DNA of 40,355 bases from positions 1-40,355 of IMG/VR virus record IMGVR_UViG_3300044960_000297, one strand, 5' to 3'. Below the pieces are notes generated by a model. That model was not told the DNA's origin. It did no database searches and saw only the letters and a list, made by a program, of their open reading frames with translations. Within the stretch, counting starts at the first letter, position 1; the number at the start of each line of letters is the position of its first letter. Positions 3,400 through 6,488 of the stretch are shown piece by piece. Origin of the DNA: a virus. The position numbers were made by a program, and so were the translations under genes.

Positions 3400-3410
3400 G
3401 GAGAAAAGTC

Positions 3411-3827
3411 ATGTTCGAATGGCCTAGCTATGATGATCTCTTTGGCGGCCGGCAGCGCCGGGTCAAGACGTTCCGCCGTGTGGCGCTCGTGGTTGCGGTT
3501 GTTGCGGTTGCGGGTGCTCTGCTGGCGGCCGGCCTGAGCCGCGCTAGGGCGCACACCGCTCCGAGCGGCTGGGCGTATGATACTGAGTGCTGTTCCACCC
3601 GGGATTGCGCTCCTGCTGCGCCTGGAACGGTGAACGAGGTGCGCGGCGGGTATGAGATCGTGCTCCGGCCCGGTAGCCACCCCTCTGCGCGTTCCGTGGT
3701 TGTCCGGGATTTCGTTCCCCATGGTGATCCCAGGATCAGGCCCAGCGGGGATGAATACCGCCACGTGTGCGTCATTCCGGGTTCGCAGCGTGTCCTGTGT
3801 CTCTATGTCCCGCCCGGCGGTGTGTGA
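3411..3827 (+). CDS. Membrane-anchored cysteine-rich protein of the lysis cassette
   Basis: A 138-residue protein with a short cytoplasmic head, one strong transmembrane segment at about residues 24-42 (VALVVAVVAVAGALLAAGL), then an exported domain. That domain has five cysteines, notably ECCSTRDC, and the motifs GWAYDTECC, GGYEIVLRPG and DEYRHVCVIPG. This pattern recurs in unnamed proteins of alphaproteobacteria and their phages, to my recollection. AGAAAAG-type spacing and the ATG at 3411 fit the start. Its stop overlaps the next ATG (TGATG). It may act in the periplasm at lysis or in superinfection exclusion; this is not established. Confidence 0.75.
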   Translation: MFEWPSYDDLFGGRQRRVKTFRRVALVVAVVAVAGALLAAGLSRARAHTAPSGWAYDTECCSTRDCAPAAPGTVNEVRGGYEIVLRPGSHPSARSVVVRDFVPHGDPRIRPSGDEYRHVCVIPGSQRVLCLYVPPGGV

Positions 3828-4051
3828 TGTTCGGCATGCTGTTCGGCCGGCTGTGGGGCATGCTGGCGGCCATGGGGGCCGTGCTGGTGGCTGCGCTTGG
3901 CATCTATCTGCGTGGTCGCAGTGATGCCAAGCGCGCTGCGGAGATCGCGGCGCGGCGCGCTGAGGATGAAAGGAGGAAGAAGGCGGATGAAGCGGCTCGT
4001 GACTATCGCTCTGATGACCTTGTTGACCGCTTGCGCCGGGGCGGGTTCTGA
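3827..4051 (+). CDS. Rz-like inner-membrane spanin (i-spanin)
   Basis: A 74-residue protein with an N-terminal transmembrane helix (about residues 10-28) followed by a highly charged, coiled-coil periplasmic region (DAKRAAEIAARRAEDERRKK). This is the topology of an i-spanin, which links with an outer-membrane lipoprotein to fuse the two membranes at the end of lysis. Its start overlaps the stop of the previous gene. The next gene begins inside it in another frame, the classic nested Rz/Rz1 arrangement. It is short for the class but the architecture is clear. Confidence 0.8.
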   Translation: MFGMLFGRLWGMLAAMGAVLVAALGIYLRGRSDAKRAAEIAARRAEDERRKKADEAARDYRSDDLVDRLRRGGF

Positions 4052-4208
4052 GGTTAGGCCTGCTGTGTGCGACTGGTTGCGCGCCTATTCGCGCGATTTT
4101 CAGGCGCGCGCAGCGGGCGAGTTGGAGGCCCTCAAGACCCCTTCGGCCCTGCGGACCATGATCGAGGACTACGGAGAGCTTCGCGCGCGTATCCGGGCCA
4201 TCTGCTAG
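3987..4208 (+). CDS. Rz1-like outer-membrane spanin lipoprotein (o-spanin)
   Basis: A 73-residue lipoprotein. The signal peptide is MKRLVTIALMTLLTAC with lipobox LTAC, so Cys16 would be lipidated and the mature protein has about 58 residues. AGGAGG at 3971-3976 lies inside the upstream gene and sets the start at 3987. The first 65 bases overlap the i-spanin gene in another reading frame. The mature part is helical and ends in IRAIC, similar in style to small Rz1-like proteins of podoviruses. It should pair with the product of 3827-4051. Confidence 0.8.
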   Translation: MKRLVTIALMTLLTACAGAGSEVRPAVCDWLRAYSRDFQARAAGELEALKTPSALRTMIEDYGELRARIRAIC

Positions 4209-4227
4209 GGACTCGCGCTTATTGCTT

Positions 4228-4791
4228 TCAGTCACCGTAGGCGACCTTGGCAACATTCGGAAGTGGCCCGCCATGACTAGCCCGAGCGGATGCCCGGACC
4301 CCGCCACGCACGGCAGAGCTTCGCTTTCGCCGGATCGCGCCGGCCGGTTCGGGCAACGCTTGCCCTACCGGGGCGGCTTGCGCCGCCCTCGCGCCGCCGA
4401 GGATCACCCTCGCGGCGGCCACGTCGTGGTCGTGGACCGTCCCGCAGCCATCACAGGCCCACTCCCGCACGGAGAGGGGCGATCTCGCGCCGACGTGGCC
4501 GCAGTCCGGGCAGACGCCCGTGCTGCGCGCGAAGCGGTCGTGGACATGCCACGACCTCCCCGCCCATTCAGCCTTGTAGCGAAGGATGCGGAGCATCCCG
4601 CCCAACCCGGCATCGGCCAGAGAACCAGCCATTCGGGTTCGCATCATGCCGCGAAGGCTCAAGTCCTCCACGGCGAAACCTTCGTAGGTGTCTACAAGCT
4701 TGCGCGTGACCTTGTGGATGTAGTCGCGCTGGGCAGCGCCCTTGCTCTTGGCGCAGTCCTTGAGGGCGCGGTCGAGACGCTGGACCGTCAT
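4228..4791 (-). pseudogene. Truncated TnpB/OrfB (IS200/IS605-type) nuclease, C-terminal half
   Basis: 187 residues from the ATG at 4791; full TnpB proteins have roughly 350-400. Seen in order: AAQRDYIHKVTRKLVDTYEG, then FAVEDLSLRGM (RuvC-II glutamate), then LADAGLGGMLRILRYKAEW. These are followed by a zinc finger (CPDCGH, CDGCGT) and HDHDVAAARVIL (RuvC-III aspartate). The N-terminal half with the RuvC-I aspartate and the RNA-binding region is missing, so RNA-guided cleavage is not expected. The ATG overlaps the TGA of the IS1595 fragment (ATGA). A remnant is most likely; a domesticated small protein cannot be excluded because the frame is intact. Confidence 0.85.
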
Positions 4792-4943
4792 CTGCGCCGC
4801 CCGGCGCGGCCTTCGACGGGGATGGCCTCGTTGATGCTCCCGCAGCGGTCGCACACGGGGCCATCCGGCCAGCGCACGCTCTCAAGGTGCGCGCGGCAGG
4901 CTTCGTCGGTGGCGAACTTCCGCATGAAGGAGCGAAGCTTCAT
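4788..4943 (-). pseudogene. IS1595-family transposase N-terminal zinc-ribbon fragment
   Basis: From ATG 4943 to TGA 4788 this encodes 51 residues. The portion ACRAHLESVRWPDGPVC and DRCGS matches the start of IS1595-family transposases, where a zinc ribbon (CxxC) follows the phrase 'LRWP(N/D)G'. The second CxxC and the whole catalytic DDE domain are missing: the frame runs out of homology after about residue 40 and stops at a join with the TnpB fragment. The fragment is below the size at which function is expected. It identifies the right part of the insertion as IS1595-derived. Confidence 0.7.
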
Positions 4944-5036
4944 AGGGCTTTAGTAGCGAATCCCATGATCGAAAGCAATAGGAACCACATGAATTGGTCG
5001 CTTTACGGCGGATCGCAAAGCAGCTAGAAAAAGAGG

Positions 5037-6488
5037 GTGACTAATCCGCTTGCTCTGGCGCGGGCTCTTGTCCGTGAGATGCCCGCGCCACCGCCGCCCG
5101 AGGCCAAGAAATTCGCGCCGAAGACGCCCGAGGACGTATGGGCGTTCTTCGGTCTGACGCCATACCCGCATCAGATCGCGGCCATGAAGCGGCCGCAGCG
5201 CTTTCTTGTCGACGTCTGGCATCGCCGCGCCGGCAAGAGCACGGAGAAGCTGCTCAAGCTGCTGTTTCGGGCCTATCACGCTCCGCTGCCCCGGGCTCGC
5301 TATGCGTTCCTGGGGCCGACCTACAGTCAGGTCCAAGACATCGCTTGGGCGGAGCTTCGGGCTTTCGGGGCAGCCATCCCTGGGGCCGTGATCAAGGAAA
5401 GCCTTATGGCGGTGGTCATACCTACTGCCATCGGCGACTACGCCCGCATAAGGCTGTATGGCGTTGACAGTCCGAAGCAGCGCCTTCGCGGCTCGTATCT
5501 GGATGGGGTTGTGCTGGATGAATTCCAGCATATCCCAGAACATGTCTGGACACAGCAGGTTCGCCCCATGCTGGCGGACAGGTCCCGGGCCTGTATTGAT
5601 GCCTTGGGCCTGCGTAATCAGTGGGCGAATTTCATCGGGACGCCGCTCGGGCGCAACCATCTCTATTCCTTCTTTCAGCGCGCTGAGGCATGGGGGCGTG
5701 GTGATAGTGTAATTGTCAGAACGGGCCAGAAGCTGGAAGAAATCAGGTCTGACCAGTGGGCTGCTCTCAAGTTAACTGTAGAAGACACCAAAGTAATACC
5801 GGAAGACGAGCTAAGAGAAATTCGGGCGACTACTCCGGAAGTAGAGTATGCGCAAGAATTCGATTGCGATTTCGATGCCGGAGTGCTTGGCGCTATTTTC
5901 TCTAACGAATTGCGAGACCTCAAAGCAAGAAATGGCGTGACGGAGTGCCAAGTAAATCCGCATGCTGAGGTTCTCTTGTCTTTCGACTTGGGCCTCAACG
6001 ACTTGACCGTTTGCTGGTTTTTCCAGCGGATAGGTCCGTGGGTAGTTTTTGTCGACTGCATGGAATGGTCCAATGCGGCTATAACTACCATCGTTAAAGA
6101 CATTCAATCCAAGGGATACCGGCTCGGGACGGCCTATTTTCCCCATGATGTGAGACAAAGGGATATGGGCACTGCAAAAACGAGATTGTCTCAGTTTCGA
6201 GAGCTTGGTCTCAAGGCTTTACCCGTGTCTACTAACGTGAGCCTGCAAGACGGCATTGCTGCGACGCGGCGGCTGCTCATGCGGGCGATGTTTGACCGCG
6301 AGCGGTGCGGGCACGCCGTCGAAATCCTGGGGACGTATCGGCGAGAGAAGGACCCGACTACCGGGCTGTTGAGGGCGGAGCCTGTGCATGATGTTTCTTC
6401 GCATTATGCTGATGCGTTGAGAACGGCGGCAGTTGGAATGCCGCGCTGGACAGGCTATACTTTCAAGGGTAGTATGGCGGAGCTTTAG
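5037..6488 (+). CDS. terL: Terminase large subunit (DNA-packaging ATPase/nuclease)
   Basis: A 483-residue packaging motor that binds the portal, pumps DNA into the prohead and cuts concatemers. Walker A is HRRAGKS at residues 62-68, Walker B GVVLDE at about 158-163, and IGTPLGRNHLY is the coupling region. The RNase H-like nuclease shows SFDLGLND (D318), YFPHD, and HYADALR near residues 456-462. The start is uncertain: GTG 5037 directly abuts its only purine-rich tract (AAAGAGG). An upstream ATG at 4989 is in frame but separated by an amber codon at 5025-5027. No small terminase subunit is recognisable, and the usual place for one is taken by the insertion. Bases 5700-6240 are visibly poorer in GC than the rest. 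Confidence 0.95.
   Translation: MTNPLALARALVREMPAPPPPEAKKFAPKTPEDVWAFFGLTPYPHQIAAMKRPQRFLVDVWHRRAGKSTEKLLKLLFRAYHAPLPRARYAFLGPTYSQVQDIAWAELRAFGAAIPGAVIKESLMAVVIPTAIGDYARIRLYGVDSPKQRLRGSYLDGVVLDEFQHIPEHVWTQQVRPMLADRSRACIDALGLRNQWANFIGTPLGRNHLYSFFQRAEAWGRGDSVIVRTGQKLEEIRSDQWAALKLTVEDTKVIPEDELREIRATTPEVEYAQEFDCDFDAGVLGAIFSNELRDLKARNGVTECQVNPHAEVLLSFDLGLNDLTVCWFFQRIGPWVVFVDCMEWSNAAITTIVKDIQSKGYRLGTAYFPHDVRQRDMGTAKTRLSQFRELGLKALPVSTNVSLQDGIAATRRLLMRAMFDRERCGHAVEILGTYRREKDPTTGLLRAEPVHDVSSHYADALRTAAVGMPRWTGYTFKGSMAEL

What the first reader, a model, noticed from the sequence alone, without database searches (positions are those of the whole stretch)
4220..4980. IS1595 zinc-ribbon fragment joined to a TnpB C-terminal half
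Two transposase families meet in one minus-strand unit with an exact ATGA stop-start join (4788-4791), flanked by a 10-bp inverted repeat. The TnpB part keeps the RuvC-II glutamate, zinc finger and RuvC-III aspartate but lacks RuvC-I and the RNA-binding half. Its frame remains open over 187 codons, which is long for a dead gene in a compact phage. It may be recent debris or a domesticated small protein.
Basis: partly seen in the sequence, partly recalled or inferred. Interest (0 to 1): 0.5.

Follow-up and report, generated by a model that had tools for sequence, protein, structure and literature searches.

The report
Shrunken two-gene IS1595-TnpB insertion sequence
A phage carries a shortened, probably inactive copy of a bacterial jumping gene that normally pairs a cut-and-paste transposase with a CRISPR-like RNA-guided nuclease; the fragment is ordinary decay, but its full-length parent family is an unusual and testable pairing.

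Summary
Window 4214-4986 (minus strand) is a complete 773-bp non-autonomous insertion sequence. It is an internal-deletion derivative of a two-gene IS1595-family element that itself encodes an IS1595 DDE transposase followed by a full-length TnpB. A parent 95-97% identical lies in Crenalkalicoccus roseus (L005/L006). Two deletions removed most of tnpA plus the TnpB N-terminus, and a middle stretch including RuvC-I. Their joins share 5 and 10 bp. The ATGA stop-start is accidental: the ATG is an internal TnpB methionine. The open frame is what a recent deletion in a gene under purifying selection would leave; I see no sign of domestication. The parent family is more interesting. I found 8 two-gene loci; 3 of the 6 family copies with both flanks known have exact 8-bp target duplications. 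An RNA fold at the right end is supported by covariation and reaches into the terminal repeat. A one-sided motif (CGNNCA, then A/T A/T) precedes the target in 8 insertions and is absent in 6 control IS1595 elements. This suggests a TnpB-omegaRNA module captured by a DDE insertion sequence, with the motif as its TAM (inferred, not shown).

The parts
4214..4986 (-). complete mini-element (non-autonomous IS1595-TnpB derivative), 773 bp, opposite to the phage genes
   Evidence: ends fixed by comparison of copies and by exact 8-bp target duplications in relatives
4966..4986 (-). left end / terminal repeat (GGTTCCTATTGCTTTCGATCA on the minus strand)
   Evidence: shared with L005, L003, L012, L021
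4214..4234 (-). right end / terminal repeat (...GAAAGCAATAAGCGCG on the minus strand)
   Evidence: shared with L003, L012, L014, L015, L017, L021
4788..4943 (-). truncated IS1595 transposase: zinc-ribbon N-terminus, 51 aa
   Evidence: Pfam Zn_ribbon_IS1595; 6 synonymous and 0 nonsynonymous differences from L005 over 133 bp
4800..4810 (-). deletion join 1 (998 bp of L005 lost: rest of tnpA plus TnpB residues 1 to about 78 in L003 numbering); shared CCGGG
4722..4734 (-). deletion join 2 (383 bp in L005 numbering across an assembly gap; about TnpB residues 98-248 of L003, including RuvC-I at 184); 10-bp shared GCCCGGCGCG with one substitution in the window
4228..4791 (-). TnpB remnant, 187 codons, in frame across join 2
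4214..4344 (-). omegaRNA-scaffold-like region, retained; covarying fold that ends in the right terminal repeat
4987..5000 (-). left flank: CGACCA (4995-5000) then 8-bp target ATTCATGT (4987-4994); fits the family motif CGNNCA then A/T A/T

Best explanation
The region is a miniature, non-autonomous copy of a two-gene IS1595-family insertion sequence (DDE transposase gene, then a full tnpB, between terminal repeats). Shown: the ends and both gene remnants are collinear with a complete parent, and two internal deletions joined at short shared sequences account for everything between. Inferred: the copy makes no working transposase or nuclease. It could still be moved in trans by a full-length copy because both ends are intact, and it could lend its right-end RNA to an intact TnpB. 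Inferred for the parent: TnpB uses an omegaRNA whose scaffold runs into the right terminal repeat and whose guide is the flanking DNA; after excision it recuts the empty site next to a TAM-like CGNNCA motif, so the element is copied back.
For: Window pieces match L005/L006/L002 at 97.0% over 495-496 bp, 94.7% over 187 bp and 95.5% over 89 bp, collinear with two gaps. Base-by-base joins share 5 bp (CCGGG) and 10 bp. Intact relatives: L003 has tnpA 305 aa and tnpB 410 aa overlapping as GTGA. Eight distinct two-gene loci were found: L003, L012, L013, L021, L026, L005, L043, L084. Exact 8-bp duplications: L012, L043 and L026. L003, L043 and L026 TnpA hit Zn_ribbon_IS1595 and DDE_Tnp_IS1595; their TnpBs hit OrfB_IS605 and TNB. 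L003 TnpB matches the solved TnpB chains 8h1j and 8bf8 at 1.3e-48. RNA fold: 16 of 40 pairs changed on both sides against 5.7 in shuffles, 0 of 500 reaching it. Left-flank motif: 0 of 10000 random placements reach it, against 4018 of 10000 for 6 control IS1595 elements.
Against: The window copy has no target duplication: ATTCATGT on one side, AGTCCCTA on the other; L003 and L021 lack one too, so 3 of the 6 family copies with both flanks known. The parent in L005 ends at a contig edge, so its own right end was not seen, and it contains Ns in or beside both genes. No second copy of the mini-element was found, so its mobility is untested. No clean empty site was found: L027 lacks the element upstream of terminase but has a different neighbouring gene. 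In L026 the right repeat pairs with the scaffold less well than a copy of its left repeat would. Motif and guide position are correlative.
Confidence: 0.9

Rival explanations
1. A domesticated small protein: the 187-aa TnpB C-half (zinc finger plus partial RuvC) was kept by the phage for a new role.
For: Frame open over 187 codons; join 2 is in frame. Window against L005 shows few amino-acid changes: 5 nonsynonymous (353 sites) and 7 synonymous (127 sites) in the C-half.
Against: Those differences also cover the time before the deletions, when the full gene was selected, so they do not show selection on the fragment. RuvC-I and the N-terminal half are missing. Differences hit conserved residues (DRD to DHD, Leu to Ser). 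No other record has the chimera: the RE-pattern scan of viral contigs returned 13 stretches, none with this deletion.
Confidence: 0.04
2. A true chimera: two separate insertion sequences (IS1595 and a TnpB element) landed next to each other and recombined.
For: Each remnant belongs to a different protein family.
Against: Complete relatives carry both genes in the same order, overlapping or abutting, inside one pair of ends, and the window pieces are collinear with that parent.
Confidence: 0.02
3. An assembly chimaera: short-read assembly joined different phages at a repeated element, so that flanks and perhaps joins are artefacts.
For: No target duplication in the window copy; L003 and L021, also metagenome contigs, lack one too. 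Left/right tetranucleotide distance 0.225 is near the top of the 0.141-0.243 range for segments of the same size.
Against: The distance is within that range, GC is 0.625 against 0.620, and a spanin/endolysin block beside the terminase is plausible phage order. The left flank still fits the family motif.
Confidence: 0.12
4. For the parent family: the one-sided CGNNCA motif is an oriented target preference of the IS1595-type transposase, not a TnpB TAM, and tnpB is just one more passenger gene.
For: Six control IS1595 elements of 2.0-3.2 kb carry other, unrelated extra ORFs. The controls' transposases are only 33-41% identical to L003 TnpA, so their lack of motif does not prove that the composites' transposase lacks the preference.
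Against: The motif is not mirrored on the right in the three copies with exact duplications (11/12 against 3/12 matching positions, Fisher p 0.003), which is odd for a symmetric DDE transpososome (general knowledge). The right-end RNA fold is conserved.
Confidence: 0.35

Closest known systems
IS1595 family insertion sequences
   Same: Zn_ribbon_IS1595 plus DDE_Tnp_IS1595 transposase, terminal inverted repeats, 8-bp target duplication, extra genes common
   Different: the extra gene is a full tnpB overlapping or abutting tnpA; the right terminal repeat doubles as part of a conserved RNA fold; the window copy has lost the catalytic domain
IS200/IS605, IS607 and IS1341 elements with tnpB
   Same: TnpB with RuvC I-III and zinc finger; conserved RNA at the 3' end of tnpB and right end; motif beside the left end (compare the ISDra2 reRNA and TAM passages, PMC8612924)
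   Different: DDE transposase, inverted repeats and target duplication instead of a Y1 or serine transposase; the survey passages seen (PMC9956272) recognise only IS605, IS607 and IS1341 groups
Fanzor1 in eukaryotic and viral DDE transposons (Mariner, IS4-like, MuDr, Sola; PMC3627910 passages)
   Same: TnpB-family nuclease captured by DDE transposons with terminal repeats
   Different: these are bacterial/phage TnpBs with an IS1595 transposase
MITE-like internal-deletion derivatives of insertion sequences (general knowledge)
   Same: both ends kept, coding capacity lost by internal deletion
   Different: two separate deletions, the second in frame, which leaves a long open frame; only one copy seen

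Membership tests
IS1595 family (parent element) | zinc ribbon plus ISXO2-like DDE transposase | tested here: met
   L003, L043, L026 TnpA: PF12760 and PF12762 above curated cut-offs
IS1595 family (parent element) | terminal inverted repeats and 8-bp target duplication | tested here: met
   exact in L012, L043 and L026; absent in window, L003, L021
IS1595 family (window copy) | complete transposase | tested here: not met
   51-aa zinc-ribbon stub only; the window copy is a derivative, not an autonomous member
TnpB RNA-guided nuclease (parent) | RuvC-I Asp, RuvC-II Glu, RuvC-III Asp, C4 zinc finger, OrfB domains | tested here: met
   alignment A1, Pfam, PDB relatives 8h1j/8bf8; one Cys of the finger is altered in L003 (CPATG)
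TnpB RNA-guided nuclease (window copy) | complete catalytic triad and N-terminal half | tested here: not met
   residues 1 to about 78 and about 98-248 deleted, including RuvC-I
omegaRNA | structured RNA from the tnpB 3' end through the right end, guide from flanking DNA | tested here: inconclusive
   covarying fold, 0 of 500 shuffles, but no Rfam match and no RNA data; guide position is inferred
TnpB TAM | short motif 5' of the target at the empty site, required for cleavage | tested here: inconclusive
   CGNNCA then A/T A/T at the left flank of 8 insertions; cleavage not testable here
MITE-like derivative | both ends intact, internal deletion, mobilised in trans | tested here: inconclusive
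   ends and deletions shown; no second copy found

The most novel reading that the evidence does not exclude
A lineage of bacterial and phage DDE (IS1595) insertion sequences has merged its right terminal repeat with a TnpB omegaRNA, so that the same bases serve the transposase and the guide RNA. TnpB survivorship, not the transposase, fixes a one-sided CGNNCA motif at the insertion sites. In phages the module may act as a homing drive against empty-site competitors, which could explain three phage loci that kept an intact tnpB and right end after losing the left end and all or most of tnpA. The window copy would be a decayed, guide-only satellite.
Probability: 0.4. Interest if true: 0.72.

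Novelty: new variant of a known kind. Interest (0 to 1): 0.5.

Why it matters
The window fragment alone is ordinary. Its parent family matters because, in the papers seen here, bacterial TnpB is described with Y1 or serine transposases, while capture by DDE transposons is described for eukaryotic Fanzor. A bacterial DDE insertion sequence with tnpB lets one ask whether RNA-guided recutting of the empty donor site helps a cut-and-paste element that leaves target duplications, and whether target motifs of insertion sequences can be imposed by nuclease survivorship rather than by the transposase. I did not search ISfinder or subscription journals, so priority is not established.

Tried and rejected
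DNA and genome searches. Distant blastn of 3400-6488 against phages found no match. tblastn of L003 TnpB found 0 of 72,556 plasmid records at E<=1e-40, and 140 of 50,697 phage records at E<=1e-20, all under 60% identity. Genome draws: L003 TnpB in 2 of 299 genomes of the parent's family and 1 of 385 of its class; L003 TnpA at E<=1e-40 in 30 of 299; L043 TnpA in 3 of 398 (phylum) and 1 of 385 (class). The two new phylum hits, L082 and L083, have no tnpB hit in the fetched stretch. Of 13 RE-pattern stretches, 6 (L029, L032, L034, L036, L037, L038) had neither gene and were dropped as chance or unrelated.

Rejected ideas. (a) A guide inside the element, between the conserved GAATGTTG and the right repeat: this stretch varies in length among relatives but is identical in L012 and L013, which sit at different sites; pairing of the scaffold with the right repeat points to a guide outside. 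(b) An automatic search for target duplications gave many spurious low-score pairs (10-12 of 16 end matches); these were ignored, and only pairs with 13 or more matching bases were used. L026 was missed by that script and read by eye. (c) Strict co-divergence of TnpA and TnpB: L021 is discordant (TnpA 72-73%, TnpB 56-61% to L003), so some exchange is likely.

Limits. The motif statistics were made after seeing the motif; the random-placement control allows for position but not for choosing the feature. The density figure is post hoc and I do not rely on it. The 8 insertions include two of the same element (L012, L013) and two close relatives (L005, window); with one per lineage (6) the result is still 0 of 10000, although its best six columns then start at -9. 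Left flanks show no homology to each other at 1e-3. The structure-prediction tool was not used.

Full report
What is there. The minus strand of 4220-4980 holds a 51-aa IS1595 zinc-ribbon ORF (4788-4943) and a 187-codon TnpB C-half (4228-4791) between a short inverted repeat. The window is a virus record with no other copy of the stretch. The element lies between a spanin/endolysin block and the terminase large subunit, opposite to the phage genes.

What it comes from. Searching for the two proteins brought a complete parent: L005/L002 (a viral contig) and L006/L023 (Crenalkalicoccus roseus). The window aligns to it collinearly in three pieces: 94.7% over 187 bp, 95.5% over 89 bp and 97.0% over 495-496 bp, with two gaps. 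Gap 1 removes 998 bp: the rest of tnpA and the first roughly 78 residues of TnpB. Gap 2 removes 383 bp in L005 numbering, across an assembly gap; by the L003 protein this is about residues 98-248, including RuvC-I at 184. The joins share CCGGG and a 10-bp GCCCGGCGCG that has one substitution in the window. Two deletions therefore explain the apparent chimera. The ATGA overlap is an accident: the ATG is the internal Met of RAAQMTVQ.

The full-length family. L003 shows the intact layout: left repeat, tnpA (305 aa), GTGA overlap, tnpB (410 aa), right repeat. L043 and L084 form a second, deeper branch; L043 TnpA is 48% and its TnpB 33% identical to L003. Three more viral loci (L014, L015, L017) keep an intact tnpB and right end but no left end and no more than a tnpA remnant. 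Pfam and PDB comparisons confirm both proteins. The family is rare in the draws made.

Ends and target. Comparing copies sets the ends 6 bp outside TATTGC...GCAATA, so the window element is 4214-4986. L012 and L043 and L026 have exact 8-bp duplications (ATCATCTG, AGGGTACG, TTAAAAGT). The window copy, L003 and L021 have none. Missing duplications are often due to recombination or adjacent deletion (PMC11708052, abstract); assembly chimaerism is the other possibility, and composition does not exclude it.

A one-sided motif. Counting back from the left end, 8 insertions have C 8/8 at -14, G 7/8 at -13, C 7/8 at -10, A 8/8 at -9, A/T 8/8 at -8 and A/T 7/8 at -7; the 8-bp target occupies -8 to -1. 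No random placement among 10000 in the same flanks scores as high, with 8 insertions or with one per lineage (6). Six control IS1595 elements without tnpB (L045, L046, L047, L054, L076, L077), all with exact duplications, show nothing (4018 of 10000), nor do 10 right flanks (8183 of 10000). In the three composites with duplications the motif matches 11 of 12 positions on the left and 3 of 12 mirrored on the right (the positions were counted by eye). I read it as a candidate TAM; an oriented transposase preference is the main rival. The feature was chosen after looking at the data.

A right-end RNA. The last 130 or so bases, from the tnpB 3' end through the right end, fold into a common structure in 8 elements: 94.3% of cells paired, 16 of 40 pairs with changes on both sides against a shuffled mean of 5.7 (0 of 500), and far fewer when slid. 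The structure was derived from these same sequences, which favours it over slid versions. Helix 1 alone has compensatory changes in 5 of 5 pairs. Helix 4 pairs a conserved UGUUGC with the GCAAUA of the terminal repeat: 6 of 6 pairs in six elements and 5 of 6 in four. L043 keeps it through UGCUGA/UCAGUA, where its right repeat differs from its left repeat in the direction that restores pairing; L026 goes against the pattern. Rfam has no matching family at the thresholds used. ISDra2 reRNA likewise covers the tnpB 3' end and right end, with about 16 nt of flank as guide, and its TAM lies at the donor joint (PMC8612924, passages). By analogy the guide here would be the flank beyond the right end; this is inferred.

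State of the window copy. Between window and L005 the zinc ribbon has 6 synonymous and 0 nonsynonymous differences; the TnpB C-half has 7 synonymous (127 sites) and 5 nonsynonymous (353 sites). This is the mark of a parent under purifying selection and a young deletion, which is enough to explain the open frame. Two nonsynonymous differences alter residues conserved in the relatives: Arg to His in DRD, and Leu to Ser. The product lacks the RuvC-I Asp and the N-terminal half, so nuclease activity is not expected. Both ends and the RNA region survive, so mobilisation in trans is possible but unshown.

Literature. Full-text searches of the held library: IS1595 with TnpB, 5 papers, none about the linkage from titles and abstract starts; TnpB with DDE, 26 papers, none evidently about a bacterial DDE insertion sequence with tnpB from titles and abstract starts; further searches. 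Passages read: PMC9956272 (groups IS605, IS607, IS1341), PMC3627910 (Fanzor1 in Mariner, IS4, MuDr, Sola and Helitron), PMC10711439 (one passage). Abstract read: PMC11870625, TnpB as a gene drive for insertion sequences in plasmids. ISfinder and subscription papers were not searched.

Verdict. The finding is real and explained: a decayed, miniature copy of a two-gene insertion sequence. The value lies in the parent family, a bacterial DDE insertion sequence with a TnpB-omegaRNA module, which gives specific, testable predictions.

Noticed in passing
L014, L015, L017: Three viral loci keep an intact tnpB and right end of this family after losing the left end and all or most of tnpA; possibly retained for TnpB function.
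   Followed up: partly
L021:2564-3004 and L051 near its end: A variant of the composite element has a third ORF (146 aa, no Pfam match) between the left end and tnpA; L051 shows the same kind of arrangement at a contig edge.
   Followed up: partly
L045, L046, L047, L054, L076, L077: Other IS1595-family elements with exact target duplications carry unrelated extra ORFs; two (L045, L047) look like PIN-domain toxin genes by eye (not tested).
   Followed up: partly
window 3411-4208: Overlapping lysis cassette: Rz-like spanin (3767-4051) and a nested Rz1-like small protein (by position; PHROG of unknown function) ending at 4208, five bases before the element's right end.
   Followed up: partly
L005:961-2082: A further transposase-like gene (IS630-like by eye, not tested) is inserted in the same tape-measure-like gene of the Crenalkalicoccus provirus that holds the parent element.
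   Followed up: no
L049: Two related IS1595 transposase genes lie in tandem (4001-4819 and 5256-6062).
   Followed up: no
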